The position numbers and the translations under genes are program-made. Shown here in pieces: positions 4,415-39,362 of a stretch of DNA of 43,577 bases (position 1 is its first letter; each line of letters begins with the position of its first letter). The notes under the pieces were generated by a model that was not told the origin of the DNA, ran no database searches, and saw nothing but the letters and a program-made list of their open reading frames with translations. This stretch comes from an uncultured Bacteroidia bacterium (GTDB taxonomy: Bacteria > Bacteroidota > Bacteroidia > Bacteroidales > UBA932): NCBI GenBank assembly GCA_902768985.1, contig CACXNA010000003.1, positions 122,675-166,251 of the forward strand, in the 5' to 3' direction.

Positions 4415-4422
4415 CAAATGTA
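4415..4422 (-). promoter_or_regulatory. -7 promoter box of dnaX (TACATTTG)
   Basis: Perfect TAnnTTTG on the minus strand, ending 6 bp before the dnaX ATG, so the transcript start falls at or within a few bases of the start codon. It is the left half of a divergent promoter; 12 bp separate it from the opposite box at 4435-4442. Confidence 0.7.
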
Positions 4423-4434
4423 ATGAATTTTACG

Positions 4435-4442
4435 TAAATTTG
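4435..4442 (+). promoter_or_regulatory. -7 promoter box of the secreted protein gene (TAAATTTG)
   Basis: Perfect TAnnTTTG, ending 5 bp before the GTG at 4448. The predicted transcript start is at or next to the start codon, which implies a leaderless or nearly leaderless mRNA. Confidence 0.7.
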
Positions 4443-4447
4443 CTCGT

Positions 4448-5221
4448 GTGAAAAGGCGATTGACCCATCTTTTTCTGACCCTCCTGCTCCTGGCCGCCGC
4501 CCTGCCGGTGTCCGGGCAGGGGAAGATTTACACCCGCAAGATGCGCCTGGCGGACTTCCCCACCAAGACCACCAAGATCGTGCTTGAGGGCCACTCCTTC
4601 CTGGAGCTCGCGCTGCGCGAAGAGATTGCCGTCCACTGGCGCATCTCCCCCTTCGAGTTCTGCGATTTGGAAGAATACGGACGCCTGCGCAACTCGTCCT
4701 CCTACTACTTCCTCACCCTGGCCCAGGAAGCGGGTCTGGCGTATCTGATCCTCGAAAAAGGCGGCAAGCCGGACGAAGAAGACCATCTCAAGAAACCCTT
4801 CGAAGTGATCCGGATGCCGATCGCCAGCGTGGACAACCCCACGGGGCGGGAACTCGTCTTCATGGGCGCCTTCATCGACATCATCCAGCGCTTCACGGAA
4901 GCGGCCATGACATCGGATAAAGTGGCCTACGGCGGCCTGGAATCGGCCAACCACATCCGCCTGCGCGGCCGCACGGTCTACTTCGACCCCGACCTGGCGG
5001 ACGAAGCCTACCTGCGCGCCGAGCCGGGCGCCCTGCTCACGATTACCATCGCCCCGGAAGAACCCGGCCCCAGGACCGTCTGCTACAAGATGCTCATCGC
5101 GGCCGACACCCACGAGCTGCTCTCCTTCGAGCGCAGCCGCTACAAAGACCCCACCGACGGCCGCTTCACCGACGCCGAAGCCCGCCGCTTCTCCCGCCGC
5201 GGCGCCACGGTCGTGCGGTAG
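4448..5221 (+). CDS. conserved hypothetical secreted protein
   Basis: No family is recognised. The 257 aa product starts with a signal peptide (basic KRR, a hydrophobic LFLTLLLLAAALP stretch, likely cleavage after VSGQG near residue 25), so it should reach the periplasm or beyond. The rest is soluble and mixed alpha/beta without repeats or membrane segments; the C-terminus is very Arg-rich (RRFSRRGATVVR). The start is GTG at 4448; the next in-frame Met, residue 32, would remove the signal peptide. A -7 box ends 5 bp upstream, so the mRNA may begin at the start codon. It is monocistronic and divergent from dnaX. Possibly a lineage-specific Bacteroidales protein. Confidence 0.75.
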   Translation: MKRRLTHLFLTLLLLAAALPVSGQGKIYTRKMRLADFPTKTTKIVLEGHSFLELALREEIAVHWRISPFEFCDLEEYGRLRNSSSYYFLTLAQEAGLAYLILEKGGKPDEEDHLKKPFEVIRMPIASVDNPTGRELVFMGAFIDIIQRFTEAAMTSDKVAYGGLESANHIRLRGRTVYFDPDLADEAYLRAEPGALLTITIAPEEPGPRTVCYKMLIAADTHELLSFERSRYKDPTDGRFTDAEARRFSRRGATVVR

Positions 5222-5284
5222 ACGGGGATGCGTTCGGAGCTTTGCGACGCAGGGGGTCCGGGAGGTTAGCCCACCGGTAATAAT

Positions 5285-5307
5285 ATTCGCCGGGTCAAGC
5301 CCGGAAT
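5285..5307. repeat. stop-adjacent ATTC...CCCGGAAT palindrome, copy 1
   Basis: Dyad of the form ATTC-GCCGGG-TCAAG-CCCGGAAT with a small asymmetry in the left arm. It begins 2 bp beyond the stop codon of the minus-strand regulator gene (5310). Closely related dyads occur at 17649-17669 and 41324-41344. It may end or stabilise the transcript; no clear U-tract follows. Confidence 0.6.
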
Positions 5308-5309
5308 GG

Positions 5310-6455
5310 CTACAGGTTCACGTACGTCGTGACGTCCTCCGCGGAGATGGGTTCGCCGCCGAGGATGAGGAGGCGGTCGACGACGTTGTCGAGCTCGCGG
5401 ATGTTGCCGGGCCAGTGCTTCTCCTGGAGAAGCTTCACGGCCTCGGGCGAGAAGGAACGCGGCTTGCTGCCGTCGGTGTACTTCCCGAGGAAATGCTCGA
5501 TTAGGCGCGGAATGTCGTCGCGGCGCTCGTCCAGCGACGGCACGCGCACGACGATCACGCTGAGGCGGTGATAGAGGTCCTCGCGGAAATTCCCCTTCTC
5601 GATCTCAGCCTGCAGGTCCTTGTTCGTCGCCGCGATCACGCGCACATCCACCTCGATATCCTTGTCGGAGCCCACGCGGGAGAGCTTCTTCTCCTGCAGC
5701 ACGCGCAGCACCTTGGCCTGCGCGGCGAGGCTCATGTCGCCGATCTCATCCAGGAAGAGCGTGCCGCCGTCGGCCTGCTCGAACTTGCCCTTGTGCTGCT
5801 TGATAGCAGAGGTGAAGGAACCCTTCTCGTGGCCGAACAGCTCGCTCTCGATCAGCTCGGAGGGGATGGCGGCGCAGTTCACCTCGATGAACGGCATCGC
5901 GCTGCGCTGGCTGAGCTGGTGGAGATTGCGGGCCACGAGCTCCTTGCCGGAGCCGTTCGGCCCGGTGATGAGCACGCGCGCGTCGGTGGGCGCCACCTTC
6001 GCGATCATGTCGCGGATGAGCTGCATCGGGGCGGACTCGCCGATCATGTCGGCGCCGTAGACCTTCTTCTTGAGCGCCTTGTTCTGCGAGGTCAGCGAGA
6101 CCCGCTCGGAGGCGTTTTTGATGGTGATGAGAATGCGGTTCAGGTCCAGCGGCTTCTGCACGAAATCGAAGGCGCCCATCTTGATGCACTCGACGGCCGT
6201 CTCGATGTCGGCGTGGCCAGAAATCATGACCACGGCGCTGTCCAGACCCATCTCCGTGAGCTTCCCGAGCACCTCGACGCCGTCCATGCCGGGCATCTTG
6301 ATGTCGCAGAAGATCACGTCGTATTTCTCTTTCTCCACCTGCTGGAGGCCGGAGGCTCCATCCTCGGCGGTATCCACCTCATAACCTTCGTCGGTGAGGA
6401 TCTCCCCGAGGGAATTGCGGATCGCCCGCTCATCGTCGATAATCAGAACTTTCAT
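5310..6455 (-). CDS. sigma-54-dependent response regulator (NtrC/NtrX type, no HTH)
   Basis: Receiver domain at residues 1-120 with acidic pocket D7/D8 and phosphoacceptor D51 (FCDIKMPG). An AAA+ sigma-54 interaction domain follows, with Walker A GPNGSGKE, a GSFTSA loop in the place of GAFTGA, and FLDEIGDM as Walker B. The protein ends right after the AAA+ lid (WPGNIRELDNVVDRLL) at 381 aa, so the Fis-type DNA-binding helix-turn-helix is absent. Similar HTH-less activators are widespread in Bacteroidetes (family knowledge). The start at 6455 (MKVLIIDDE) is preferred over an upstream in-frame Met because it fits the receiver N-terminus. Last gene of the DUF1015-recQ-dnaG-metG operon, 13 bp after metG. 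No sensor kinase is nearby. Confidence 0.88.
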   Translation of the reverse strand: MKVLIIDDERAIRNSLGEILTDEGYEVDTAEDGASGLQQVEKEKYDVIFCDIKMPGMDGVEVLGKLTEMGLDSAVVMISGHADIETAVECIKMGAFDFVQKPLDLNRILITIKNASERVSLTSQNKALKKKVYGADMIGESAPMQLIRDMIAKVAPTDARVLITGPNGSGKELVARNLHQLSQRSAMPFIEVNCAAIPSELIESELFGHEKGSFTSAIKQHKGKFEQADGGTLFLDEIGDMSLAAQAKVLRVLQEKKLSRVGSDKDIEVDVRVIAATNKDLQAEIEKGNFREDLYHRLSVIVVRVPSLDERRDDIPRLIEHFLGKYTDGSKPRSFSPEAVKLLQEKHWPGNIRELDNVVDRLLILGGEPISAEDVTTYVNL

Positions 6456-6468
6456 AACGCGGAAGGGA

Positions 6469-8523
6469 TTATCCAACAATCGCGCCATTCGCCAACACTT
6501 CCTGCGGCGTGATGAAGCGCATCGTGCCGTCGCCCTGCTTGGCCATCAGGATCATGCCGTGGCTCTCGATGCCGCGGATGGTCCGGGGCTTGAGATTGGC
6601 CAGGATGCAGATCTGCTTGCCGACCATCGCCTCGGGCGTGTAGAACTCGGCGATGCCGGACACGATGGTCCGCTTGTCGATGCCCGTATCGATGGTGAGT
6701 TTCAGCAGTTTATCGGTCTTGGGCACGCGCTCGGCCTCGAGGACCGTGGCGGTGCGGATGTCCATCTTCTCGAACTCCTCGAAGGTGCATTCCGCCTTCT
6801 GCGGCTCCACCTGCTTCGCGGCCTCGGCCTTGGCGGCCGCCTCGCGCTCGGCGCGGATGCGGTCCAGGCGGTCGAGCTGCTTCTGGATGGCGTCGTCCTC
6901 GATCTTCGCAAAGAGCAGCTCCGGCTCGCCGAGCTGGTGGCCGGCGGGCAGGACCTGCGGCCGGCCGAGGATCTCCCAGTCGAGGCCGGAACCCAGCATC
7001 GCGCGCAGCCGCGCCGCGGCGAACGGGGTGAAGGGCTCGAAGGCGATGGCGAGGTCCGCGCAGATCTGCAGGGAGATATTGAGGATCGTCGCGGTGCGGT
7101 CGAGGTCGGTCTTGGCGACCTTCCAGGGCTCCGTGTCGGAGATATACTTGTTGCCGATGCGGGCGATGCCCATGGCGTCCTTGAGCGCTTCGCGGAATTT
7201 GAAGCCCTCGATGTTCTTCTCCATCGAGGCCTTGAGCGCCGGGATCTCCGCGAGGACCTCCTTGTCGATGTCCTCGAGCGCGCCGCACGGCGGCACCTTG
7301 CCGCCGAAATATTTGTGCGTCAGCACCATGGCGCGGTTCACGAAGTTGCCGAAGATGGCCACGAGCTCGCTGTTGTTGCGCTGCTGGAAGTCCTTCCAGC
7401 TGAAGTCGTTGTCCTTGGTCTCGGGGGCGTTGGCCGTGAGCACGTAGCGGAGCACGTCTTCCTTGCCCGGGAAGTCCTGCAGGTACTCGTGCGCCCAGAC
7501 GGCCCAGCCGCGGGAGGTCGAGATCTTGTCGCCCTCGAGGTTCAGGAACTCGTTGGCGGGGACGTTGTCCGGGAGGATGTAGCCGTCGCCGTAGGCTTTC
7601 AGCATGGCCGGGAAGACGATGCAGTGGAAGACGATGTTGTCCTTGCCGATGAAGTGCACCAGACGGGTGTCGGGCGACTTCCACCATTTCTCCCAGCTGT
7701 CCGGGAGAAGCTCCTGCGTATTGGAAATGTAGCCGATCGGCGCGTCGAACCAGACGTAGAGCACCTTGCCCTCGGCGCCCTCGACGGGCACGGGCACGCC
7801 CCAGTCGAGGTCGCGCGTGACGGCGCGCGGCTGCAGGCCGCCGTCCAGCCAGCTCTTCACCTGGCCGTAGACGTTGGAGCGCCACTCCTGGTGGCCGTCC
7901 AGGATCCACTCGCGCAGCCACTGCTCATAGTCCTGCAGCGGAAGGTACCAGTGGGTCGTTTTCTTCTTGATCGGCTCGGCGCCGCTGAGCTTGCTCTTGG
8001 GGTTGATCAGCTCCTCGGGGCTGAGGGTGCTGCCGCACTTCTCGCACTGGTCGCCGTAAGCGCCCTCGTTGCCGCACTTGGGGCAGGTGCCCACGATGTA
8101 GCGGTCCGCGAGGAACTGCTTGGCCTCGGGGTCGTAGTACTGCTCGCTCTCCTTGGTGATGAACTTGCCCTCCTCGTAGAGCTTGCGGAAGAAGCCGGAG
8201 GCGTTCTTTTCGTGCACCTTGGAGGAGGTGCGGCCATAGATGTCGAAGTGGATGCCGAGCCCTTCGAAGGAGTCCTTGATGATGCCGTGGTAGCGGTCCA
8301 CGATGTCCTGCGGGGTGCATCCCTGCTGGCGGGCCTTGATCGTAATCGGCACGCCATGCTCGTCGGAGCCGCAGACATACAACACTTCCCGGCCGCGCAT
8401 CCGCAGGTAGCGGACATAGATATCAGCCGGCACATAGACACCGGCCAGGTGGCCGATGTGGATAGGACCGTTGGCGTAAGGCAACGCACAGGTCACGAGG
8501 GTTCTTTTGAATTGTTTGTCCAT
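6469..8523 (-). CDS. metG: methionyl-tRNA synthetase
   Basis: Class I aminoacyl-tRNA synthetase that charges tRNA-Met. The HIGH motif (PIHIGHLAG) lies near residue 20. A four-Cys zinc knuckle (CPKCG...CEKCG) lies in the connective peptide. The KMSKS loop appears as DKISTS. A C-terminal EMAP/Trbp111-like tRNA-binding domain (from [15 protein letters not shown]) follows an Ala/Glu-rich linker. At 684 aa it matches the long bacterial form with the dimerising C-domain. The start [11 protein letters not shown] overlaps the dnaG stop by one base (TAATG), implying coupling. Confidence 0.96.
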
Positions 8524-10523
8524 TATTTTGTGTTTTTTTCTCTTCCCATTCTTTGTTTGATCCGCCGCTGCGCGGCCTGGATCTTGACCATCTCCTGCAA
8601 GATGCCGGGTTCCTGCTCCGGCGTTGCATCCGGCAGCTGCCGGCGCAGCGTTTCGTAGCGGTCCTGCATGCGCCGTTCGGCGTAGCCGAGGATGGCGCGC
8701 GGCACCTGCGCGACGAGCCACGAGGCCGTGGTCGTCATCGATTTTTCAAAGGCCTCCACGGTCAGCTGGTACTTCTCGGTGGAGAGCTGCGAGACCACCT
8801 CCGCAATGCGGCGGTCCGGCGCGTCAAGCATGCGCTTGACAATCTCCTGCTGGCCGTAGCCCTCGTCATAGAGGGCATAAAAGGCATCGTAGACGGCGGC
8901 GTAGGCGCTGTTGGCCATGCGCGTGCCGTCGCTGAAGGCATCGCGGATGAAGTCCGCGACGCTGGGCTTGTCCTGCTCATTGCCGCTGTAGTAGTCCGAG
9001 TCGGACTCGAAGTCCAGCTCGTCGCAGCCATGGCGCAGCAGGAAATAGAGCAGGTCGCGCTCGGACGGGCCCAGGATGCGGTTCTCCTCCTGGATCGTCG
9101 GCTGCACGACCGGTTCGGGCGCCGGCTGTTGCGCATCGGAGACCACCGTGTCGTAGGCGCTCGGCGGGAGGTCGTTGCGGCGGCGCCGCTCCTCGCGCTC
9201 CGCGGCCTTGAGGGCGTCTTCCTGCAGCTTGCGGCGCGTCCGGTTGATGCGGTCGAAGAGGATCGCCACCTCGATGCCGAACTGCTGCGCCGTCGCCTCC
9301 GCGTAAGTGGAGCGCTTGACGGCGTCGGGGATCTGCGCGATCGTGTCGGCGATGTCGTTGATCAGGCCGGCCTTCTTGAGCGGATCGCCCGCCGCCTCGG
9401 AGAGCAGCAGGTCCGTCTTGAAGACGATAAAGTCTTTCTCATTTTGCGCGATGTACTCGCGCACCTCATCGCGGCTGTGCTTGCGGGAGAAGGAGTCCGG
9501 GTCGTCCCCGTCGGGGAGCAGCACCACGTGGACGTTCATTCCCTCGGCGAGCACCATCGGGATGCCGCGCAGCGCGGCGTGGATGCCCGCGGAGTCGCCG
9601 TCGTACATGATGGTGATGTTCTCCGTGAACTTCTTGATCAGGCGCACCTGCTCCACCGTGAGGGAGGTGCCGCAGGAGGCGACGACGTTGGTGATGCCGA
9701 GCTGGTGCATCATCACCACGTCCACGTTGCCCTCCACGAGGATGCAGCGGTCCTCCCGGGCGATATCGCTCTTCGCGAAATAGATACCCAGCAGGTTGCG
9801 GCTCTTGATGTAGATCTCCGTCTCCGGCGAATTGACGTACTTCGCGGGGTTGTCCGCCCGGAGCGTGCGCCCGCTGAAGGCGATCACGCGCCCGCTCACG
9901 GAGTGGATCGGGAACATCACGCGTTCGCGGAATTTGTCCGCGAGCGAGCCGTCCTCGTTCTGCACCGCCAGGCCGGCGCCCAGCAGGTACTCATCCTTGT
10001 AGCCGGCGGCGCGGGCGGCGTCCACCAGGCCCGTGCGGGCCGACGGTGCCCAGCCCAGGCCCCAGCGCTCGATGGTGGCGTCCTCGATGCCGCGGGAGCG
10101 GTAGTACTGGTAGCCCACAGCGCGGCCTTCGCCGCCCTGGAGTTGTTCGGAAAAGAATTTGCGGGCGAATTCGGACACCAGCAGCAGGCTCTCGCTGCGC
10201 TGCCGGCGGGCGATCTCCTCGGCGGATTCCTCCTCCTCGACGATCTCGATATGGTATTTGCGGGCCAGGTAGCGAAGGGCTTCCACGTAGGAGCAGTGCT
10301 CCTGCTCCATCACGAAGCCCACGGCCGTGCCGGCCTTGCCGCAGCCGAAGCACTTGTAGATACCCTTGGAGGGCGACACATAGAAGGAGGGCGTCTTCTC
10401 ATTGTGGAACGGGCAGCAGGCCACAAAATTGGCCCCGCGGCGCTTCAGCGTCACGTAATCGCTCACCACGTCCGCGATCTGCGCGGTGTCCAGAATCAGA
10501 TTGACGGTCTCCTGCGGTATCAC
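8523..10523 (-). CDS. dnaG: DNA primase
   Basis: Synthesises RNA primers at the replication fork. The N-terminal CHC2 zinc finger is visible ([12 protein letters not shown]...CFGCG, about residues 36-63). The RNA polymerase core and TOPRIM domain follow ([12 protein letters not shown], then DGDSAG and DPDS), then a helicase-binding C-terminal region after a charged linker. At 666 aa it is normal for Bacteroidetes. The start codon is GTG (MIPQETVN) overlapping the recQ stop as GTGA, and the product's end overlaps the metG ATG. Second of the replication genes in this operon. Confidence 0.95.
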
Positions 10524-12736
10524 TGCGCTATCTCACATAGGAATTTCAGGCGGACCAGCCGGACCTCGTTCTCATAATAGTCGGGGCCAAGGGCGTCCAT
10601 GGCGGCCTGGACGTCGTCCGACGTCGCGTCCTCCTTGAAATACCGATAGATTTCCTCGACGATCTCCTCGTCGAGGTTGTTTTCAATGTAATAGTCCAGA
10701 TTGAGTTTGGTGCCGCTGGAGACGATGGCCTCGATCTCGCTGAGCAGCTCGTCCATGTCCATCTCGCGGGCCTCGGCGATGTCCTCGAGGTCCATCCGGC
10801 GGTCGATGCTCTGGATGATGGCCACCTTGGCAGCCGACTTGTTCGGCGTGGATTTCACGACGAAGTCGTCCGGGCGTTCGATTTCGTTTTCCTCGACGTA
10901 TTTCTTGATCAGCTTGATGAACTCTTCGCCGAACTTGCGGGCCTTGCCTTCGCCCACGCCCTGGCAGCTCTTGAGCTCTTCGAAGGTGATCGGGTAGAGG
11001 ATGGACATGTCTTCCAGGGCCGGATCGCCGAAGATGATCCAGGGCTGGAGTTTGAGACGCTTGCCCAGGTCCTTGCGGAGGTCCTTGAGCATGGACAGCA
11101 GCATCGGGTCGCCCGCTCCGCCGCCGGCCTTCATCGCCACGGCAGCCGCTGCGGCCTCCTCGTCGTCTTCATCGTCTTCGCCGCCGCCGGCGAAGACGCG
11201 GTCCTCCACGAGCTTCAGCTCCCAGGGATCCGCGGCAAACTGACGGCCGAGGTCCGTGACATGGATCAGGCCGTAGGTCTCGATCTCCTTGGTCAGCAGG
11301 TGGGCGATCAGCCCCTGGTGGATGACGGTGCACCAGAATTTCTCGGAGTGGGGCTTGCCCGCGCCGAAGAATTCCAGCTCGTCGTGCTTGTAGGACTTGG
11401 TCAGCGAATTGCTCACGCCCGCGAGGATGTTCGCGAGGTGGTCCAGCTTGAAGTGCTCCGGGAGCGCCTCGATGAGGCGGATCACCAGCTGCATCTCCTT
11501 GCGGCCGTCGAAGGTCGGCTTGGGATGCACGCAGTTGTCGCAGCAGTGGCAGTTCTCGTCCGGGTAGTCCTCGCCGAAATAGTTCAGCAGGAGCTTGCGG
11601 CGGCACTGGCTGGATTCCGCGTACGCAAGCACCTCGGAGAGCAGCTGACGGCTGATCTCCTGCTCGGCGATGGGCTTGCCCTGCATGAATTTCTCCAGCT
11701 TCTGGATGTCCTTGTAGCTGTAGTAGGCAATGCAGAGGCCCTCCTGGCCGTCGCGGCCGGCGCGGCCCGTCTCCTGGTAGTAGCTCTCGATGCTCTTGGG
11801 GATGTCGTAGTGGATGACGAAGCGGATGTCCGGCTTGTCGATGCCCATGCCGAAGGCGATCGTGGCCACGATCACCTGCACCTCCTCCATCAGGAACTTG
11901 TCCTGGTTCTCGGCGCGCACCTTGGCGTCCAGGCCGGCGTGGTACGGCAGGGCCTTGATGCCGTTGATGCAGAGCAGCTCGGCCATCTCCTCGACCTTCT
12001 TGCGGCTGAGGCAGTAGATGATGCCGGACTTGCCGGGGTTCTGGCGGATGAACTTGATCAGGTCCTTTTCCGGGTCCACCTTGTCCCGGATCTCGTAGTA
12101 GAGGTTCGGGCGGTTGAATGAGGACTTGAAGACGGCGGCGTCCGGGATGCCGAGGTTCTTGAGGATGTCGCTCTGCACCTTGGGCGTGGCCGTGGCCGTG
12201 AGCGCGATAATGGGCGCGCGGCCGATCTGGTCCACCAGCGAGCGGATGCGGCGGTACTCCGGACGGAAGTCGTGGCCCCATTCGGAGATACAGTGCGCCT
12301 CGTCCACGGCGTAGAAGGAGATCTTCACCTCCCGCAGGAGCTGGACGTTCTCGTCCTTCGTCAGGGACTCCGGCGCCACGTACAGCAGCTTGGTCTTGCC
12401 GGCGAGCAGGTCCTCGCGGACCTCGTCGATCTGCTGGCGCGTGAGCGAGGAATTGAGGAAGTGCGCGATGCTCCCCTCCCCGGCCACGAAGCCGCGGAGC
12501 AGGTCGACCTGGTTCTTCATCAGGGCGATCAGCGGGGAGATGATAATGGCCGTGCCTTCCATCACCAGAGCCGGCAGCTGATAACACAGCGACTTGCCGC
12601 CTCCGGTGGGCATCAGGACGAAGGCATCACCCCCTCCAATCAGGTGCGTGATGATCTTCTCCTGGTCCGCCTTGAAGGCATCATAGCCGAAAAACTCCTT
12701 GAGAGTTTTGTGTATCAGTGCCGAATCGGGTTTCAT
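10520..12736 (-). CDS. recQ: ATP-dependent DNA helicase RecQ
   Basis: 3'-5' superfamily 2 helicase for recombination and fork repair. Walker A is MPTGGGKSLCYQ, the DEAH box is VDEAHCISEWGHDF and motif VI is QETGRAGRDGQ. The RQC zinc site comprises cysteines in CRRKLLLNYFGE and ENCHCCDNC. A winged helix follows, then an HRDC domain (ITFEELKSCQGVGEGKARKFG). An extra ~110-residue acidic C-terminal tail lies beyond HRDC, and an acidic DDEDDEE/poly-Ala linker precedes HRDC. The length is 738 aa. It sits 6 bp downstream of DUF1015 and overlaps dnaG by 4 bp. Confidence 0.95.
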   Translation of the reverse strand: MKPDSALIHKTLKEFFGYDAFKADQEKIITHLIGGGDAFVLMPTGGGKSLCYQLPALVMEGTAIIISPLIALMKNQVDLLRGFVAGEGSIAHFLNSSLTRQQIDEVREDLLAGKTKLLYVAPESLTKDENVQLLREVKISFYAVDEAHCISEWGHDFRPEYRRIRSLVDQIGRAPIIALTATATPKVQSDILKNLGIPDAAVFKSSFNRPNLYYEIRDKVDPEKDLIKFIRQNPGKSGIIYCLSRKKVEEMAELLCINGIKALPYHAGLDAKVRAENQDKFLMEEVQVIVATIAFGMGIDKPDIRFVIHYDIPKSIESYYQETGRAGRDGQEGLCIAYYSYKDIQKLEKFMQGKPIAEQEISRQLLSEVLAYAESSQCRRKLLLNYFGEDYPDENCHCCDNCVHPKPTFDGRKEMQLVIRLIEALPEHFKLDHLANILAGVSNSLTKSYKHDELEFFGAGKPHSEKFWCTVIHQGLIAHLLTKEIETYGLIHVTDLGRQFAADPWELKLVEDRVFAGGGEDDEDDEEAAAAAVAMKAGGGAGDPMLLSMLKDLRKDLGKRLKLQPWIIFGDPALEDMSILYPITFEELKSCQGVGEGKARKFGEEFIKLIKKYVEENEIERPDDFVVKSTPNKSAAKVAIIQSIDRRMDLEDIAEAREMDMDELLSEIEAIVSSGTKLNLDYYIENNLDEEIVEEIYRYFKEDATSDDVQAAMDALGPDYYENEVRLVRLKFLCEIAQ

Positions 12737-12742
12737 AGATAT

Positions 12743-16407: not shown

Positions 16408-17004
16408 TTAGCCTATAAAGATACCTATTTTTTCCATCCTTTCCAAAAAGTCGCGCTCGAGCGTCGCGCGCACGCGAACTTCGAGGGTGCATTCCGCCAG
16501 GAAAGACTGCCCCCGCTGCGGCAGGTCCAGGTCCTTGACGAGCTTCATCACGGCCGGCAGGTCCCCATACGGGAAATGCAGGGTGTACCAGCGCCCGGCC
16601 ACCTTCTCGACCACCTGCGCGGCCGCGAGGGCGTCCGCCGTGGAGGTCTTGTAGGCGCGGATGAGGCCGGGAATGCCGAGCTTGATGCCGCCGAAATAGC
16701 GGATCACGACCACCAGGATGTCGCTCAGCCCGGCGGAGTCGATCTGCCCGAGGATGGGGCGCCCGGCGGAGCCGGAGGGCTCGCCGTCGTCATTCGCCCG
16801 CCAGGGCTCACCGTCCAGGCCGAGCCGGTAGGCGTAGCAGTGGTGACGCGCATCGTGGTATTCCTTCTTGAGCGCGGCCACGATCTCCTTGATCTCCGCC
16901 TCGCTCTCGACAGGATAAGCGCGTGCGATGAATCGGCTCCCGTTGTCCTTGAAAAGCCCTTCGCTCGGCGCCCCGATGCTTTTATATGTGTCTTTTGCTG
17001 CCAT
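16408..17004 (-). CDS. yigZ: IMPACT/YigZ family protein
   Basis: Member of the UPF0029/IMPACT family, 198 aa. The N-terminal IMPACT domain shows [40 protein letters not shown] and the conserved [19 protein letters not shown] small C-terminal DUF1949-like domain follows. The biochemical role is unsettled; eukaryotic IMPACT modulates GCN2, and bacterial YigZ crystallises as a possible RNA or nucleic-acid binder. The start is set at 17004 ([10 protein letters not shown]); an upstream in-frame Met would overlap the divergent promoter. The -7 box TAATTTTG ends 8 bp upstream, so the leader is very short. Confidence 0.9.
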
Positions 17005-17012
17005 TGGCGAAT

Positions 17013-17020
17013 CAAAATTA
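17013..17020 (-). promoter_or_regulatory. -7 promoter box of yigZ (TAATTTTG)
   Basis: Perfect TAnnTTTG on the minus strand, ending 8 bp before the yigZ ATG; 12 bp from the opposed box at 17033-17040. Confidence 0.65.
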
Positions 17021-17032
17021 GTGAATAATTCG

Positions 17033-17040
17033 TATCTTCG
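17033..17040 (+). promoter_or_regulatory. -7 promoter box (TATCTTCG)
   Basis: One mismatch to TAnnTTTG, ending 4 bp before the ATG at 17045; the predicted transcript starts at the start codon. Right half of the divergent promoter shared with yigZ. Confidence 0.55.
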
Positions 17041-17044
17041 CAAT

Positions 17045-17611
17045 ATGAATTACAGATACAGAGTCACCCTCTCCGGTATCAAAGGCTTTTACCGGGTATA
17101 CGTCGTGAACGGCGACAATTCGCTGTATACGTTCCATAAGCAGCTCCGCGCAGACCTCGAGTTCCCTATGGACCAGCCCATCCTCTTCAAGGCGCTCGGC
17201 GCCGAGGGAGAGGTCGTGGCGCGCTACGCGCTCATGGACATCGGCTACGGCGCCGTGGACAACGTGACCATCGCCGACACCATCAAGGCCGGGGTCGCCA
17301 GTTTCGTGTATTTCTATGACATCGCATCCAAGAAGAACGTGATCATCACCCTGGAGGGCGAGACCTCCGAGGTCACGGCCACGCCGCGCGTCGTCGAGAC
17401 CAAGGGTCCCATTCCCCTGGAGTTCGAGAACGGCTACGTCGCCTTCGAGGACCTGCCGGAAGAGCGCCGGCACCTGCCGGGCGAGGCCCGCGGGGGCGAT
17501 GATGAAGACGATGACGACGAGGATGATGAAGATTTCGACGACGAAGACGAGGACGATGAGGAGGATGAGGACAAGGACGAAGAAGAGCTCCTCTACGACG
17601 AAAACGAATAA
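17045..17611 (+). CDS. pRiA4b ORF-3-like (IS1096 TnpR-like) protein with acidic tail
   Basis: 188 aa. Residues 1-125 (MNYRYRVTLSGIKGFYRVY, later ILFKALGAEGEVVARYALMDIG and VYFYD) resemble the PRiA4_ORF3 family, a beta-rich domain of unknown function once linked to mobile elements; here it looks like a chromosomal housekeeping copy without a transposase. From about residue 147 to the end the protein is almost only Asp and Glu with a few Lys, a low-complexity tail such as is seen in nucleic-acid mimics or chaperone-like proteins. No signal peptide. It is divergent from yigZ and probably leaderless, and it ends at a strong bidirectional terminator. Family call moderate; function unknown. Confidence 0.7.
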   Translation: MNYRYRVTLSGIKGFYRVYVVNGDNSLYTFHKQLRADLEFPMDQPILFKALGAEGEVVARYALMDIGYGAVDNVTIADTIKAGVASFVYFYDIASKKNVIITLEGETSEVTATPRVVETKGPIPLEFENGYVAFEDLPEERRHLPGEARGGDDEDDDDEDDEDFDDEDEDDEEDEDKDEEELLYDENE

Positions 17612-22075: not shown

Positions 22076-22083
22076 CAAATTTA
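22076..22083 (-). promoter_or_regulatory. -7 promoter box of deoxynucleoside kinase 2 (TAAATTTG)
   Basis: Perfect TAnnTTTG on the minus strand, 23 bp before the ATG at 22052 and exactly 12 bp from the opposed box at 22096-22103. Confidence 0.65.
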
Positions 22084-22095
22084 ACATAAGTTTTG

Positions 22096-22103
22096 TAATT
22101 TTG
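22096..22103 (+). promoter_or_regulatory. -7 promoter box of the MBL hydrolase (TAATTTTG)
   Basis: Perfect TAnnTTTG, 21 bp before the ATG at 22125; right half of a divergent promoter. Confidence 0.65.
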
Positions 22104-27627: not shown

Positions 27628-27639
27628 AGGAAAAATTAC

Positions 27640-27647
27640 TACTTTTG
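27640..27647 (+). promoter_or_regulatory. -7 promoter box of pbpC (TACTTTTG)
   Basis: Perfect TAnnTTTG, ending 8 bp before the pbpC ATG. A weaker minus-strand box TAATTTTT at 27631-27638 is adjacent and may serve the alpha-2-macroglobulin gene. Confidence 0.65.
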
Positions 27648-31031: not shown

Positions 31032-32644
31032 CAGTACTGCTTGATCCGCTCGGCGGTGAGCGCCTGGCGGAGGGCGTCGTCATAGCGGATGCGAATCTGC
31101 ACCCCGGCCTGCTGGAAGTAGTAGCGGACGGCGATCTCCTCCTCGATGAAGGGGATGATCTCCGACGACTTCAGGTAGAGGAAGTCCTCCTTATCCATAT
31201 TGATAAGGGCGTCCAGCGCATCCAGCTGCTCCTTCATGACGCCGTCCAGGCCGTCCCGGCGCAACTCTTCCTTCGCCCGGTCGAAATAGGTCTTGGCGGA
31301 GGAGCGGTAGTCGAATTCCTCGCCTTTGGCGAATTCGACGAAGTCCTCGTAATCGTTCGAATCGAGGTGGAATTCCTCCACGGGCGGGATCCACTCGTGG
31401 TGGCGCACGAAGCGCAGCGCGTACTGCTCGATGATGCCGTAGGTGACGAGCGAATACGTCAGGCGGCTGTACTCGCGGAACTTGAGCTCGACGTCAGGCG
31501 TGATGCCGCCGCCGTCGCGCACAATGCGTCCGTGGGCCGTTTTGAATTCATGCGTCAGCGAATCGGGGATATGCGCCACGCTGCCGTCCTCACGGCGCTG
31601 GGCGTAGTCGATCGCCTGCACGCAGCGGCCGGAAGGCGTATAGTATTTTGCGGTAGTAACTTTGAGTTCGCCCCCGTAAGGCAGCGAACGGATGCTCTGC
31701 ACGAGGCCTTTTCCGAAGGTGCGCTCGCCCATGATGGTGGCGCGGTCCAGGTCCTGCAGCGCGCCCGCGACAATTTCCGAGGCGGAAGCGGAGCCGGAGT
31801 CCACCAGCACGATGACGGGCAGCTTCGTATCGATGGGATCCTTGGTCGTCCGGAGCGTGTAGCTGGAGCCCTGCTCCTTGCCCTGGGCGGACACGACCAC
31901 CGAACCCTTCGGGACGAAGGCGGACACGATCTCGACAGCCTCGTTCATCAGGCCGCCGCCGTTGCCGCGCAGGTCCAGCACCAGGGTCTTCATGCCCTGC
32001 TTCTTGAGCTCGGTCACGTGGCGGCGGAATTCGTCGCCGACGCCGTCGGTGAAGCCCGTCTGGGAGATGTATCCCACGTTGCCGTCCAGCATGCCGGCAT
32101 ATTCGATGTCGTCGAGCTTGATGCGCTCGCGGGTGACGGTGATGTCCGTCACTTCGCCGCTGCGCAGCTTCTTGACCTTGAAGACCACCTGCGTGCCCGG
32201 CTCGCCGCGCATCTTCTCGCTGCACTGCTGGGAATTCAGGCCGACGACGGTCACGCCGTCGATGGCCATGATCTCGTCGCCGCACACCAGGCCGTTCTTC
32301 GCGGCCGGCGAGTTGGCGTAAGGCTCGTTGATGATCACGTTGCCTTGCAGGTCGGGCTTGTAGATCACGGCGCCGATGCCGCCGTAGGTCTTGTGGATCA
32401 TCATCTGCAGATTCTCATTGTCCTCCTCGGGGATGTAGACCGTGTAGGGGTCGAGGTCGGCGAGCATCGCGTCGATGCCGCGCCGCTCGATGCGGTCGAT
32501 GGGCAGCGAATCCACGTAGGAACGGTTGAGCTCCTGCAGGATGGCGGTCTGGATTTCGGTCCATTTGCCCAGCTTGAAGCGGGGGGACTGGGCGCCGGCG
32601 CACACAGATACGCCGAGCAGTATCAAAATCAGGAAACGTTTCAT
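31031..32644 (-). CDS. S41 family C-terminal processing protease
   Basis: Periplasmic serine protease, 537 aa. The signal peptide MKRFLILILLGVSVCAGAQ is cleaved near residue 20. A PDZ domain lies at about residues 85-165 (GGIGAVIYK, SPAAKNGLVCGDEIMAI). The S41 catalytic domain has the Ser/Lys pair S287 (SGSASASE) and K312 (GERTFGKG), with Q316. A long C-terminal tail of about 170 residues follows and is helical and charged. Function: trims or degrades envelope proteins from their C-termini. It starts 13 bp after the EamA stop. Confidence 0.93.
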   Translation of the reverse strand: MKRFLILILLGVSVCAGAQSPRFKLGKWTEIQTAILQELNRSYVDSLPIDRIERRGIDAMLADLDPYTVYIPEEDNENLQMMIHKTYGGIGAVIYKPDLQGNVIINEPYANSPAAKNGLVCGDEIMAIDGVTVVGLNSQQCSEKMRGEPGTQVVFKVKKLRSGEVTDITVTRERIKLDDIEYAGMLDGNVGYISQTGFTDGVGDEFRRHVTELKKQGMKTLVLDLRGNGGGLMNEAVEIVSAFVPKGSVVVSAQGKEQGSSYTLRTTKDPIDTKLPVIVLVDSGSASASEIVAGALQDLDRATIMGERTFGKGLVQSIRSLPYGGELKVTTAKYYTPSGRCVQAIDYAQRREDGSVAHIPDSLTHEFKTAHGRIVRDGGGITPDVELKFREYSRLTYSLVTYGIIEQYALRFVRHHEWIPPVEEFHLDSNDYEDFVEFAKGEEFDYRSSAKTYFDRAKEELRRDGLDGVMKEQLDALDALINMDKEDFLYLKSSEIIPFIEEEIAVRYYFQQAGVQIRIRYDDALRQALTAERIKQY

Positions 32645-32657
32645 AAATGCAATTCTA

Positions 32658-33506
32658 TTAAGCGGATCCGCCCAGCAGCAGGGCCACGCCGGTCAGCATC
32701 ATCACCAGGACCACCGCCTTGTCGCGGATATGGCCCTCCTTGAGGACCCACGCGCCGCCGATGAAGGTGACGACCACGGACGTGCGGCGTATCGTCGAGA
32801 TGATGGAGAGCATCGCATCCGGCTCCTTGACGGCGAAGAAATACAGGGCGTCGGCCACGGTGATCAGCACGGCGATCAACAGGATGCGCCAGTCCCAGAC
32901 GAAAGGCTGGAAATGCTTCTTGTCCGTCAGGTACTGGATCAGCACCACGACGGCAAGCAGGATCGTAATATAAAGATTCGTCCAGCTCTGGACGAACAGG
33001 GGCTCCAGGTCCTGCAGGATCACCTTGTCCCAAAGCGCACTGGCCGCGCCGGACAGCACGGAAACAATCATGAAGGCAACGCCCTTGGTGGACGTGATCT
33101 TGTCGGTGTCGTGGCCGGCGGAGCGCGAGCTCAGGAACAGGGCCGTCATGACGACGGCGACGCCCAGCCACTGCACGAGGTTGAGCCGCTCCCCGAACAG
33201 GAGGATGGAGAAGATGACGACGAACATCGGCCGGGAGGCCTTCATCGTACTCACCGTCGTCAGCGGCAGGCACTCCATCGCCTTGAGTCCGGAGATCCAG
33301 GACACGGAGACCAGCACCGCCTTGAAAATCAGGGAGAAGTGGTCGGAAAGGGGCCCCTTGGTCAGGAAGGGGGAAAGGAAAACGGTCGTCAGCGCCGTGG
33401 CGCTGAGCAGGATCCAGTATACACTGTTGCGGGAAAGCGCCCGCTTCTTGGCGACATCATAGACACCAAGGAGCAACGCGGAACCGACCGACAGCCAAAG
33501 CCACAT
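32658..33506 (-). CDS. EamA/DMT family transporter
   Basis: Inner-membrane permease with ten hydrophobic helices in two EamA repeats, 282 aa. The start is set at 33506 (MWLWLSVGSALLLGVYDVAKK). An in-frame ATG 30 bp upstream (33536) lies before the -7 box TAACTTTG at 33531-33524, so transcription would begin after it; the shorter N-terminus also matches relatives as remembered. Conserved features are YDVAKKRAL and, in repeat two, DALYFFAVKEPDAMLSI. Substrate unknown. First gene of EamA-S41-recO, divergent from uvrA. Confidence 0.85.
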   Translation of the reverse strand: MWLWLSVGSALLLGVYDVAKKRALSRNSVYWILLSATALTTVFLSPFLTKGPLSDHFSLIFKAVLVSVSWISGLKAMECLPLTTVSTMKASRPMFVVIFSILLFGERLNLVQWLGVAVVMTALFLSSRSAGHDTDKITSTKGVAFMIVSVLSGAASALWDKVILQDLEPLFVQSWTNLYITILLAVVVLIQYLTDKKHFQPFVWDWRILLIAVLITVADALYFFAVKEPDAMLSIISTIRRTSVVVTFIGGAWVLKEGHIRDKAVVLVMMLTGVALLLGGSA

Positions 33507-33523
33507 AGACAGGAAGATTTTGC

Positions 33524-33531
33524 CAAAGTTA
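33524..33531 (-). promoter_or_regulatory. -7 promoter box of EamA-S41-recO (TAACTTTG)
   Basis: Perfect TAnnTTTG on the minus strand, 17 bp before the ATG at 33506. It decides the start codon by excluding the ATG at 33536. 13 bp from the opposed box at 33545-33552. Confidence 0.65.
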
Positions 33532-33544
33532 ACCATAAAATTCG

Positions 33545-33552
33545 TAACTTTG
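33545..33552 (+). promoter_or_regulatory. -7 promoter box of uvrA (TAACTTTG)
   Basis: Perfect TAnnTTTG, 10 bp before the uvrA ATG, giving a leader of only a few bases. Confidence 0.65.
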
Positions 33553-33562
33553 ACAACTTCTT

Positions 33563-36270
<2,708 letters not shown>

Positions 36271-36274
<4 letters not shown>

Positions 36275-37263
36275 CCAAGATTGAAGCCGCACGTGCGGAG
36301 TACAGAGAGTGGTGCCAGGCCATCGGCATCGACACCCTGGAGAAAGTGAATGAAACCGTCGAAGCCGGCAAGGCCATCGAGTTGATCAACCTCTGCGAAG
36401 CCCGCCAGGAGCGCCAGTATGCGCAGGCGGCGGACCAGATTTTCTGGAAACGCCGCAGCTGCCGCATCGTGATGATGTCGGGGCCTTCGTCCAGCGGCAA
36501 GACCAGCTCCTCGCTGCGCATCGCCCAGCAGGCCCGCGTGCTGGGTCTCAAACCCCGGGTGATCGAGCTGGACAACTATTTCGTGAACCGCGACGACACG
36601 CCGATCGACGAGAACGGCGAGCGGGATTACGAGGCGCTGGAGGCCATGGATGTGCCCTTCCTCAACGAGCAGCTCACCGACCTGCTGGCCGGCAAGGAAG
36701 TGGAACTCCCGAAGTTCGACTTCAAGGAAGGCCACCGGGTCTTCAAGGGTGACCGCATGAAAATGGAAGACGGCGACATCCTCTTCATGGAGGGCATCCA
36801 CGCCCTGAATCCGGCCCTGACGCCGGCCATCCCGCGCGAGAACATCTTCGGCATCTACATCTCCGCCCTGTCGTCCCTGCCGGGCGGCGAGAAGGACCAC
36901 GGCTCCACCACGGACAAGCGGCTGCTGCGCCGCATCGTCCGGGACAACCGCGTCCGCGGCATCTCGCCGGAGGACAACATCCTCCGCTGGCCGTCCGTGC
37001 GCCGCGGCGAGACGCGCAACATCTTCCCCTATGAGGAGAATGCCAACATCGTCTTCAATTCCTCGACGCTCTACGATGTTCCACTGCTGAAATACTATGC
37101 AGAGCCGCTCCTGTGCGGCATCAGCGAGTCCTCCCCCGCCTACGAGAAGGCACAGTCCCTGCTGAAGATCCTGGCCATGGTCACGGCGCTCAAACCTTCA
37201 GAAATCGCCGCCATCCCCCCGACATCCATTATGCGGGAGTTCATTGGCGGGCAGACGCTGTAA
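36271..37263 (+). CDS. uridine kinase-like nucleoside kinase (short form)
   Basis: P-loop nucleoside kinase of the PRK/uridine kinase family, 330 aa. Walker A is GPSSSGKTS at about residues 71-79, followed by ELDNYFVNRDDTP and DYEALEAMDVP, then FMEGIHALNP. Many Bacteroidetes relatives are about 550 aa with N-terminal TGS and tRNA-SAD-like domains; here those are absent and only a short helical stretch precedes the kinase. The ATG overlaps the uvrA stop by 4 bp, so it is coupled to uvrA; the functional reason is unclear. Convergent with asnA, 5 bp apart. Confidence 0.85.
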
Positions 37264-37268
37264 AAGGA

Positions 37269-38306
37269 TTATACCAACTTGATTCCGGCCTCGCGGCACT
37301 GGCGTACCATCTCTTCGGGCCAGATGCTGCTCTGGATCTCGCCGATGTGCGCCTTGCGCAGCAGGTACATGCAGAGGCGGGACTGGCCGATGCCGCCACC
37401 GATGGTGCAGGGCAGCTCGCCGGCGAGCAGGCTCTTGTGGAAAGGAAGCTCCTCCTTCCAGGTCTCGCCCTTGATCTTCAGCTGGCGGCGCAGGGCCGCT
37501 TCGTCCACACGGATGCCCATGCTGGACAGCTCGAAGGGGCGCTGGAGGATGTTGTTCCAGACCAGGATGTCGCCGTTCAGGCCCTGGAAACCCTCCTCGT
37601 TGGGGCTGCTCCAGTCGTCGTAGTCCGCGGCGCGGCCGTCATGTGGCTGCCCGTCGGAGAGGGCACCGCCAATGCCGATGATGAACACGGCGCCCCAGCG
37701 GCGCACGATTTCGTTCTCGCGCTCTTTCGGGGTGAGGCACGGATAGAGCTGCACGAGCTCTTCGGCGTGCACGAAATGGATATCTTCCGGCAGCTCAGGG
37801 GTGATCTGCGGGAATTCGACAAAGAGTTTATTCTCGGTGACTTTGATGGCCTCGTAGATGCGGCGGACGGTCTGCTTGAGGAAGCCCAGGTGGCGGTCCT
37901 CCCGGCGGATGACCTTCTCCCAGTCCCACTGGTCCACGTAGATGGAGTGGATGTTGTCCAGCTCCTCGTCTGGACGCAGGGCGTTCATGTCCGTGTAGAT
38001 GCCGCGCCCGGGGGCGATACCCATCTGCGCCAGCTTGGCGCGTTTCCATTTGGCGAGGGAGTGTACGACCTCGGCCTGCTGCTCCGCCATATCTTTAATG
38101 GGGAAGCGGACCGGACGTTCCACGCCGTTGAGTTCGTCGTTGAGGCCGGTCCCGGAGAGCACGACCATCGGGGCGGTCACGCGCAGCAGGGCCAGCTGGG
38201 CTGACAGATTGTTCTGGAACATGTCCTTGACGGCCTTGATGGCCTTTTCCGTTTTCTCTGCTCCGTCGAGCAGATCAACGTACCTTTCGGGGAGGATCAA
38301 TTGCAT
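37269..38306 (-). CDS. asnA: aspartate-ammonia ligase (asparagine synthetase A)
   Basis: Makes asparagine from aspartate, ammonia and ATP. At 345 aa it is close to E. coli AsnA (330 aa). The class II synthetase-like fold shows FPIKDM, VVHSLAKWKR, GIYTDMNALRPDEELDNIHS, YVDQWDWE and, near the end, GGGIGQSRLCM. The promoter box TATCTTTG is 27 bp upstream. Single gene between two convergent or tandem neighbours. Confidence 0.95.
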   Translation of the reverse strand: MQLILPERYVDLLDGAEKTEKAIKAVKDMFQNNLSAQLALLRVTAPMVVLSGTGLNDELNGVERPVRFPIKDMAEQQAEVVHSLAKWKRAKLAQMGIAPGRGIYTDMNALRPDEELDNIHSIYVDQWDWEKVIRREDRHLGFLKQTVRRIYEAIKVTENKLFVEFPQITPELPEDIHFVHAEELVQLYPCLTPKERENEIVRRWGAVFIIGIGGALSDGQPHDGRAADYDDWSSPNEEGFQGLNGDILVWNNILQRPFELSSMGIRVDEAALRRQLKIKGETWKEELPFHKSLLAGELPCTIGGGIGQSRLCMYLLRKAHIGEIQSSIWPEEMVRQCREAGIKLV

Positions 38307-38333
38307 GACGGGTAATACACTAACTTGTCAATG

Positions 38334-38341
38334 CAAAGATA
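38334..38341 (-). promoter_or_regulatory. -7 promoter box of asnA (TATCTTTG)
   Basis: Perfect TAnnTTTG on the minus strand, 27 bp before the asnA ATG, in the 39 bp gap after the flippase-like gene. Confidence 0.65.
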
Positions 38342-38345
38342 GTGA

Positions 38346-39326
38346 TTATTTCTTCTTACGCAAGGTCAGGTGGGCGTAAGATATAATGCCGAGCAGGATG
38401 ATCAGGATGGCGTGGGCTTCGTGGCCGAGCGTGGCCAGCAGGATACCGGTCTCCCAGGTGGCGCCGTAGAGGCTCTGGACCGACAGGGCCACGAGGTAGT
38501 GGTAGGCGCCGATGCCGCCCGGAACGGGAATCACGGAGGCGAGGTTGCCCACGGCCGACAGGAAGAGCGCGTCCGTAAAGGTCAGCATGTCCAGCATGGG
38601 AATGGCGCGGATGGTGCAGTACATCATCGTGATGTAGCTCGCCCAGATGCCGACGGTGCTGAGCAGGAAGGGCCATTTGCGCTCCATCTTCGCGATGCTG
38701 GCGAAGCCGGCGCCAAGGCCGGACAGCGAATCGGCAATCTTGCCGAAAATGCGCACGCGGCCGCGGAAGCGGAACACGGCCCAGAAGAGGGCGACCACCA
38801 GCACCACGGCGCCCAGGGCGATCCAGCCCGCCGGGCCGCCGGCGCGGCCGGTCAGGGGGCCCCAGACGTTCTCGGTGAAGAAGGGTCCGAAGGTGCTCCA
38901 CTTGGAGGCCAGGGCCGACACGAGCACGATGGCGACGGCCACAATGTCGGAGAGACGTTCGCAGACGATGGTTCCAAGGGCCTTCTCGTAGCTCATCTTC
39001 TTGGTGCTGACGTAGCCGCAGCGGACGAATTCGCCCGCGCCGGGCAGCACCACGTTGACCAGGTTCCCCACGTTGATGGCGTCCCAGACGCGCATCCGGC
39101 GGAGCTCCGGATCGAGCGGCCGCATCAGCGCGGTCCAGCGCCGCTCGCGGAAAACCAGCGCCACGATGGCGGCGATGAAGTAGAGGGCGATCCAGATCCA
39201 GCGGGTCTGCTGCAGGTCCTCCCAGAAGGTCTTCCAGTCAACGGTCCGGAAGGCGAACCAGACCAGCACGACGGCCAGGATGGCCGACAGGGTATATTTG
39301 ATGATATTTGAAGCTTTCTTGTCCAT
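38346..39326 (-). CDS. lysylphosphatidylglycerol synthase TM/flippase-like membrane protein
   Basis: Integral membrane protein of the UPF0104/YbhN (LPG_synthase_TM) family, 326 aa with about eight hydrophobic segments. Typical family segments are the N-terminal helix YTLSAILAVVLVWFAF, VNVVLPGAGEFVRCGYVS, CERLSDIVAVAIVLV and IPVPGGIGAYHYLVAL. It has only the membrane part, with no aminoacyl-transferase domain. The start is the ATG at 39326 (MDKKASNII) rather than a TTG three codons upstream; the -7 box TAAATTTG ends 6 bp before this ATG. Function not established. Confidence 0.85.
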   Translation of the reverse strand: MDKKASNIIKYTLSAILAVVLVWFAFRTVDWKTFWEDLQQTRWIWIALYFIAAIVALVFRERRWTALMRPLDPELRRMRVWDAINVGNLVNVVLPGAGEFVRCGYVSTKKMSYEKALGTIVCERLSDIVAVAIVLVSALASKWSTFGPFFTENVWGPLTGRAGGPAGWIALGAVVLVVALFWAVFRFRGRVRIFGKIADSLSGLGAGFASIAKMERKWPFLLSTVGIWASYITMMYCTIRAIPMLDMLTFTDALFLSAVGNLASVIPVPGGIGAYHYLVALSVQSLYGATWETGILLATLGHEAHAILIILLGIISYAHLTLRKKK

Positions 39327-39332
39327 GGACTG

Positions 39333-39340
39333 CAAATTTA
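39333..39340 (-). promoter_or_regulatory. -7 promoter box of the flippase-like gene (TAAATTTG)
   Basis: Perfect TAnnTTTG on the minus strand, ending 6 bp before the ATG at 39326, so the mRNA is probably leaderless; 14 bp from the opposed box at 39355-39362. Confidence 0.7.
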
Positions 39341-39354
39341 CGATTAATTATTGT

Positions 39355-39362
39355 TATTTTTG
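39355..39362 (+). promoter_or_regulatory. -7 promoter box of the pfkB operon (TATTTTTG)
   Basis: Perfect TAnnTTTG, ending 7 bp before the ATG at 39370. Confidence 0.65.

What the first reader, a model, noticed from the sequence alone, without database searches (positions are those of the whole stretch)
4415..39362. Mirror-image promoters with fixed 12-14 bp spacing between divergent -7 boxes
Six divergent gene pairs occur in the window. In five, two outward-facing TAnnTTTG boxes are separated by an almost constant distance: dnaX/4448 (4415-4422 and 4435-4442, 12 bp), yigZ/17045 (17013-17020 and 17033-17040, 12 bp), kinase 2/MBL (22076-22083 and 22096-22103, 12 bp), EamA/uvrA (33524-33531 and 33545-33552, 13 bp) and flippase/pfkB (39333-39340 and 39355-39362, 14 bp). 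Nine of the ten boxes match the consensus exactly. With this spacing the upstream (-33) region of each promoter coincides with the other's -7 box. This would be a compact bidirectional promoter module in which one polymerase excludes the other. Symmetric bacterial promoters are known, but I know of no such fixed spacing rule for Bacteroidetes.
Basis: partly seen in the sequence, partly recalled or inferred. Interest (0 to 1): 0.72.

Follow-up and report, generated by a model that had tools for sequence, protein, structure and literature searches.

The report
Divergent promoters spaced by helical turns
In a group of gut Bacteroidales, neighbouring genes read in opposite directions have paired promoter boxes whose spacing comes in whole turns of the DNA helix, apparently because each promoter carries a repeating A/T pattern that overlaps well only when the two are in step.

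Summary
The five mirror-image box pairs lie at the stated places, spacers 12, 12, 12, 13 and 14; nine of ten boxes are exact, and shuffles give none. The sixth divergent pair has a one-mismatch pair with a 1-bp spacer. In 19 genomes of the genus, 687 of 1408 exact pairs with spacers 0-30 fall at 10-14 and 30 at 15-19; the reversed-motif control gives 46 in all. But the rule is not one fixed spacing. At 1-bp resolution spacers group at 2-5, 12, 23, 33, 44 and perhaps 54, period 10.4 bp. Single promoters without a divergent neighbour carry the same period as an A/T wave, and an overlap model built from 96 of these alone follows the spacing (Spearman 0.68; 0 of 1000 permutations as high). Spacings at orthologous loci fall in the same classes. 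Best reading: two helically periodic sigma-A promoters overlap only in phase, the commonest form sharing one A/T tract. Polymerase exclusion is plausible but untested; an excess at 11-14 that the model does not explain leaves room for it.

The parts
4415..4442 (.). Divergent promoter pair dnaX(-)/4448(+): boxes 4415-4422 (-) and 4435-4442 (+), spacer 12; inferred starts 4410 (-) and 4447 (+)
   Evidence: dnaX by Pfam; the gene at 4448 had no Pfam hit. Starts are inferred from the published box position -12 to -5.
17013..17040 (.). Divergent promoter pair UPF0029 (yigZ-like)(-)/pRiA4 ORF-3-like(+): boxes 17013-17020 (-, exact) and 17033-17040 (+, TATCTTCG, one mismatch), spacer 12; inferred starts 17008 (-) and 17045 (+, the A of the ATG)
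   Evidence: the pRiA4 hit is at Pfam's cut-off
22076..22103 (.). Divergent promoter pair deoxynucleoside kinase(-)/metallo-beta-lactamase superfamily(+): boxes 22076-22083 and 22096-22103, spacer 12; inferred starts 22071 and 22108
33524..33552 (.). Divergent promoter pair EamA(-)/uvrA(+): boxes 33524-33531 and 33545-33552, spacer 13; inferred starts 33519 and 33557
   Evidence: relatives
39333..39362 (.). Divergent promoter pair LPG_synthase_TM membrane protein(-)/pfkB(+): boxes 39333-39340 and 39355-39362, spacer 14; inferred starts 39328 and 39367
   Evidence: 30 pfkB loci
27631..27647 (.). Sixth divergent pair, alpha-2-macroglobulin-like(-)/penicillin-binding protein(+): box 27631-27638 (-, AAAAATTA, one mismatch) and 27640-27647 (+, TACTTTTG), spacer 1; inferred starts 27626 and 27652
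4423..4434 (.). 12-bp spacer of the first pair, holding the central A/T stretch at -18/-19 of both promoters
   Evidence: general pattern

Best explanation
These are ordinary housekeeping (sigma-A type) promoters of a Candidatus Cryptobacteroides-like Bacteroidales, placed back to back. Each promoter has a TAnnTTTG box at -12 to -5 and, upstream, a wave of A/T-rich stretches one helical turn apart (about -18, -28, -40, -50) with G/C-richer gaps between. Two such promoters can share DNA well only if their waves are in register, so the spacer is quantised: about 12 + 10.5k bp. At spacer 12-13 the dyad lies at -18.5/-19, and one A/T tract serves as the -18 element of both. Shown here: the spacer series, the wave in promoters without a divergent neighbour, the prediction of the first from the second, and the same classes at orthologous loci. 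Inferred: that the boxes start transcription, that the tracts act by contacting polymerase or through DNA shape, and that two polymerases cannot sit there together when the spacer is short.
For: 19 genus genomes: exact pairs by spacer 5-9: 99, 10-14: 687, 15-19: 30, 20-24: 334, 25-29: 57, remainder by difference (0-4 and 30) 201, total 1408; reversed-motif controls 6, 10, 6, 8, 9, total 46; 10-14 and 20-24 each exceed 15-19 in 19 of 19 genomes (summed in 77). 1.49 Mb of five genus genomes: exact spacers group at 2-5, 11-14, 23, 32-34, 44; up to 30 bp, 56 divergent pairs against 19 convergent and 20 tandem. Spacers 6-60: best period 10.4 bp, R 0.65, 2nR2 66.6, n 78; convergent one-mismatch pairs show no period (2nR2 at most 2.3, n 266). 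96 promoters with a co-directional upstream gene: A/T peaks near -18, -28, -40, -50, period 10.4, power 0.22 against a null maximum of 0.10 in 500 phase scrambles. Overlap model from these 96 alone: top score at spacer 12; Spearman 0.68 for spacers 6-60; 0 of 1000 column permutations as high (largest 0.54); flat upstream -0.04; box flattened 0.64. pfkB: 25 of 30 genus loci have an exact pair; best-listed spacers 16 at 11-14, 6 at 21-24, one at 31, one each at 1 and 3. uvrA: 12 of 41 Bacteroidales relatives have one near the start, 9 at 10-14 and one each at 21, 23, 32. [quoted passage not shown]
Against: Spacers 11-14 are about 4.5-fold commoner than the overlap model gives (an extra term adds 14.6 log-likelihood units), so something else also favours them. 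The longer classes sit 1-2 bp beyond the main predicted maxima (23 and 33 against 22 and 31), and the model has weak local maxima at 9, 39 and 59 that are not seen as groups. One-mismatch pairs are much less periodic, best at 10.9 bp (2nR2 16, n 250). G021, of another family, has a weak wave (power 0.029, no null computed) yet 14 of its 22 pairs up to 60 bp lie at 11-14 or 21-24. The tract shape is not clear-cut: AA/TT steps are enriched and TA depleted at -22 to -15 of single promoters, but AT steps are below expectation too (95 against 119), and A-then-T and T-then-A runs have the same median length. No transcript start has been mapped. Genes were called with a home-made caller. The figures treat pairs as independent, which neighbouring boxes and related genomes are not.
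Confidence: 0.7

Rival explanations
1. A selected bidirectional switch: spacing of 11-14 bp is favoured because the two polymerases then exclude each other and couple the expression of the two genes.
For: Residual 4.5-fold excess of spacers 11-14 over the overlap model; pairs are found upstream of pfkB in 25 of 30 genus loci. Warman et al. 2026 state that opposing polymerases cannot bind together at bidirectional promoters and that competition can appear when transcription in one direction is strongly activated (PMC12825309, abstract and introduction).
Against: The helical series goes on at spacers 23, 33 and 44, where the boxes no longer adjoin the partner's -33 region. The gene pairs here show no obvious need for opposite expression (dnaX, uvrA, pfkB and others). 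Spacing at one orthologous locus differs between species by whole turns.
Confidence: 0.2
2. The palindrome is the operator of a dimeric regulator rather than two promoters.
For: It is an inverted repeat with spacers grouped by helical turn, as operators often are (recalled, not tested).
Against: The half-site is the published TAnnTTTG box. 192 exact boxes occur in 443 kb of this genome; 127 have an ATG-started reading frame within 150 bp, 81 of them 4-8 or 15-28 bp on. Single boxes upstream of genes outnumber paired ones in the samples, and the gene pairs are unrelated in function.
Confidence: 0.03
3. Compact intergenic regions alone: two boxes placed as close together as possible.
For: Intergenic regions are short and some leaders are nearly absent.
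Against: Compaction should give a smooth decay, not a low at 15-19 with recovery at 20-24. A model with flat upstream sequence has no predictive value (-0.04).
Confidence: 0.04
4. Chance or base-composition artefact.
For: In AT-rich relatives such as G027 and G029 the 10-14 class does not exceed the control (34 v 43, 11 v 12).
Against: Own genome 87 v 1; genus 1408 v 46.
Confidence: 0.01

Closest known systems
Bacteroidetes sigma-A (sigma-ABfr) promoter, -7 TAnnTTTG / -33 TTTG
   Same: Box sequence, box position -12 to -5, weak TTG near -33. A/T-rich motifs at -18 and -28, one helical turn apart, are already described for F. johnsoniae (PMC6847099, passages); B. thetaiotaomicron promoters have an AT-rich spacer (PMC7366714, one section and passages).
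   Different: Here the wave extends to about -50, and paired divergent promoters are phased by it; the passages read do not mention that.
Bidirectional promoters of Warman, Grainger and colleagues (E. coli, Salmonella)
   Same: Near-symmetric DNA expected to drive two outward promoters; physical exclusion expected.
   Different: Theirs share one -10 element, with starts 7-25 bp apart (PMC10268837, passages) and 18 bp commonest, 10 and 23 also common (PMC12825309, introduction). Here two separate boxes give inferred starts spacer+25 bp apart (37 bp at spacer 12). The form with a shared TA (spacer -2) is rare: 3 in 1.49 Mb.
Campylobacter jejuni RpoD promoters with a periodic A/T signal instead of a -35 box
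   Same: [quoted passage not shown] Petersen 2003 seen only as a reference there).
   Different: Other box, other phylum; the words divergent and bidirectional do not occur in that paper's main text.

Membership tests
Bacteroidetes sigma-A promoter | TAnnTTTG box upstream of genes | tested here: met
   127 of 192 exact boxes in the own sample have an ATG-started frame within 150 bp, 87 of them at distances 4-29; reversed motif 43 of 113, 12 of them at 4-29
Bacteroidetes sigma-A promoter | G nearly absent at -10 and -9 (TAHHTTTG) | tested here: met
   G 0.05 and 0.02 in 232 genus promoters
Bacteroidetes sigma-A promoter | -33 TTTG/TTG element | tested here: inconclusive
   TTG starts at -34 in 18 of 96 and at -35 in 12 of 96; a minority
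Bacteroidetes sigma-A promoter | Transcript starts 5 bp beyond the box | not testable with these tools
   No transcript data for this organism
Warman-type bidirectional promoter | Shared or overlapping -10 element, starts 7-25 bp apart | tested here: not met
   Inferred starts are 37-39 bp apart in the five pairs (26 in the sixth); shared-TA form 3 in 1.49 Mb
Warman-type bidirectional promoter | Both directions transcribed and mutually exclusive | not testable with these tools
   Needs start mapping and polymerase binding assays
Promoter with helically periodic A/T signal (Campylobacter-like) | A/T wave of about 10-11 bp locked to the core box | tested here: met
   Period 10.4 bp, power 0.22 against null maximum 0.10

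The most novel reading that the evidence does not exclude
Beyond passive phase-matching, the 11-14 bp form is a selected bidirectional element: one A/T tract at the dyad and one stretch of promoter DNA serve two polymerase orientations, so that each gene pair shares a single polymerase slot, as a genus-wide way of wiring divergent genes.
Probability: 0.22. Interest if true: 0.75.

Novelty: new variant of a known kind. Interest (0 to 1): 0.55.

Why it matters
If right, the distance between divergent promoters in these gut bacteria is set by the helical structure of the promoters themselves. That turns a descriptive A/T wave into a quantitative rule that predicts allowed spacings, gives a way to find promoters by their partners in uncultured Bacteroidales, and offers hundreds of natural pairs for asking when two polymerases share or compete for one site.

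Tried and rejected
Rejected: a single fixed 12-14 bp rule (the series goes on); compaction alone; an operator palindrome; a search-tool artefact (my own count on fetched stretches gave the same grouping). A first overlap model used all single promoters; because hidden partners could have contaminated it, it was rebuilt from promoters with a co-directional upstream gene. One search read minus-strand loci in the wrong orientation and was replaced. in turn looked at the wrong place in L253, whose contig is cut; at the right place it has an exact pair with spacer 24, and the counts given include it.

Rows left out: of 312 single promoters 305 had a called upstream neighbour; 179 are co-directional, 114 of them from the genus, and 96 remain after leaving out boxes more than 60 bp inside the called upstream gene. 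At pfkB, 5 of 30 loci have no pair up to one mismatch; L247 also has an exact pair at 30 and L263 one at 21; 57 of 61 genomes matched but only 30 loci were fetched, and not all keep the same divergent partner. At uvrA, 29 of 41 relatives have no exact pair with spacer 0-40 near the start (two have a one-mismatch pair, at 23 and 27). Elsewhere in those 41 loci there are 14 more exact pairs up to 40 bp: nine at 12-14, and one each at 1, 16, 24, 27 and 33; most lie about 700 bp upstream of uvrA and were not studied.

Wider taxa: in 79 other genomes of the phylum sample the 10-14 class hardly exceeds the control (same class 165 v 121 in 18 genomes; rest 205 v 241 in 61). In 12 genomes of other families of the order it is 161 v 91: G021 29 v 1, G020 19 v 7, G028 10 v 1, G025 9 v 1, but G027 34 v 43, G029 11 v 12, G030 5 v 5. 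So the rule is clearest in this genus and in G021. G087, another family of the class with 32% GC, shows a very weak wave and scattered spacers.

Papers: searches listed no paper that I recognised as reporting helically quantised spacing of divergent promoters in Bacteroidetes; I opened only the sections or passages named in the report, and no whole paper. PMC3940949 was looked at for passages and adds only that A-tract periodicity is widespread. Warman et al. 2021 was not held and is known to me from the later papers and from recall.
Full report
Observation. The window holds four exact mirror pairs CAAAnnTA-spacer-TAnnTTTG at the stated places, spacers 12, 12, 13 and 14, with none in 100 shuffles, and a fifth with one mismatch, spacer 12. 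The sixth divergent pair, an alpha-2-macroglobulin-like gene and a penicillin-binding protein gene, has AAAAATTA / TACTTTTG with a 1-bp spacer. Other genes: dnaX, UPF0029, a pRiA4 ORF-3-like protein (hit at the cut-off), deoxynucleoside kinase, a metallo-beta-lactamase superfamily protein, EamA, uvrA, an LPG_synthase_TM membrane protein and pfkB; the gene at 4448 has no Pfam hit. The nearest uvrA relatives are Bacteroidales MAGs, many from ruminants, up to 96% identical in the best segment, with Candidatus Cryptobacteroides avistercoris at 81%; the genus name is my inference from that.

Genome and genus. The own genome has 87 exact pairs with spacer 0-30 against 1 for the motif read backwards, 48 of them at 10-15 with control 0. 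In 19 genomes of the genus: 1408 pairs (control 46), of which 687 at 10-14 (control 10), 99 at 5-9 (6), 30 at 15-19 (6), 334 at 20-24 (8), 57 at 25-29 (9), and 201 by difference at 0-4 and 30 (summed in 77). In the capped listing, 24 of the 38 genus matches shown for the 5-9 class have spacer 5. Classes 10-14 and 20-24 each exceed 15-19 in all 19 genomes.

Resolution to one base. In 1.49 Mb of five genus genomes the exact spacers are 2 (3), 4 (3), 5 (2), 10 (1), 11 (3), 12 (16), 13 (8), 14 (6), 19-22 (6 in all), 23 (8), 31-35 (12), 44 (4) and a thin remainder. Up to 30 bp there are 56 divergent, 19 convergent and 20 tandem pairs. For spacers 6-60 (78 pairs) the best period is 10.4 bp with R 0.65. 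One-mismatch pairs show a weaker period, best at 10.9 bp (2nR2 16, n 250), with a group at 54; convergent ones show none (2nR2 at most 2.3, n 266).

Cause. Promoters with a co-directional upstream gene (96, genus) have A/T content peaking near -18, -28, -40 and -50, with gaps near -25, -32 and -44; a further rise near -34 belongs to the -33 TTG. The period is 10.4 bp and the power 0.22 against a null maximum of 0.10. If two such promoters are laid over each other in opposite directions, the base-by-base compatibility is greatest at spacer 12, with further maxima at 2, 5, 22, 31, 42-44 and 53 and weak ones at 9, 39 and 59, and follows the observed counts with Spearman 0.68 (0 of 1000 permutations as high). 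Removing the upstream pattern leaves -0.04; removing the box leaves 0.64. In a Poisson fit the compatibility score adds 37 log-likelihood units; a separate term for spacers 11-14 adds another 14.6, a 4.5-fold excess that the model does not explain.

Geometry. At spacer 12 or 13 the dyad lies at -18.5 or -19 of both promoters. The shared tract is A-rich on its left and T-rich on its right, but that profile counts each module in both orientations, so its symmetry is partly built in. In single promoters the -22 to -15 tract is enriched in AA and TT and depleted in TA (51 against 89 expected), AT less so (95 against 119), and A-then-T runs are no longer than T-then-A runs. The partner box covers -32 to -25 at spacer 12. 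The inferred starts are spacer+25 bp apart, using the published box position -12 to -5.

Evolution. Upstream of pfkB, 25 of 30 genus loci carry an exact pair; the best-listed spacers are 16 at 11-14, 6 at 21-24, one at 31 and one each at 1 and 3 (L247 and L263 have second exact pairs at 30 and 21). Near the start of uvrA, 12 of 41 Bacteroidales relatives carry one: 9 at 10-14, then 21, 23 and 32. Differences at one locus are thus close to whole turns. Not all loci keep the same divergent partner, and close relatives are not independent.

Limits. The rule is clearest in this genus and in G021; it is weak or absent in most other genomes sampled. G021 keeps the spacing (14 of 22 pairs up to 60 bp at 11-14 or 21-24) with only a weak wave, which the explanation does not fully cover. 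The window is richer in 12-14 bp pairs than the genome. Exclusion of one polymerase by another, promoter activity itself and the way the tracts act are not shown here.

Known and new. A/T-rich motifs at -18 and -28 are in print for F. johnsoniae (PMC6847099, passages), a periodic A/T promoter signal for Campylobacter (PMC3656092, passages), and symmetric bidirectional promoters with a shared -10 element for E. coli and Salmonella (PMC12825309, abstract and introduction; PMC10268837, passages). The quantised spacing of separate divergent promoters, and its prediction from the single-promoter wave, did not turn up in the searches named under Tried and rejected.

Noticed in passing
window 4410-4448, 17004-17045, 39326-39370; own sample: Many boxes lie 4-8 bp before an ATG (30 of 127 in the own sample), so the mRNA would be leaderless or nearly so; a second group lies at 15-28 (51 of 127). 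In F. johnsoniae 87% of predicted transcripts have leaders over 10 nt.
   Followed up: partly
window 27631-27647: The sixth divergent pair uses the shortest class, spacer 1, with one mismatch.
   Followed up: yes
genus promoters, -4 and -3: Positions -4 and -3 favour pyrimidine then purine (C/T, A/G), the complement of the TG of a partner's -33 element at spacer 12.
   Followed up: no
genus sample, 1.49 Mb: Boxes facing each other show small groups at negative spacers, -29 (3 pairs) and -21 to -23 (7 pairs).
   Followed up: no
L052, L054, L065, L066, L068, L069, L072, L076, L078, L081, upstream of uvrA: A second divergent box pair lies about 700 bp upstream of uvrA in ten of the 41 relatives, mostly with spacer 12-14.
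   Followed up: no
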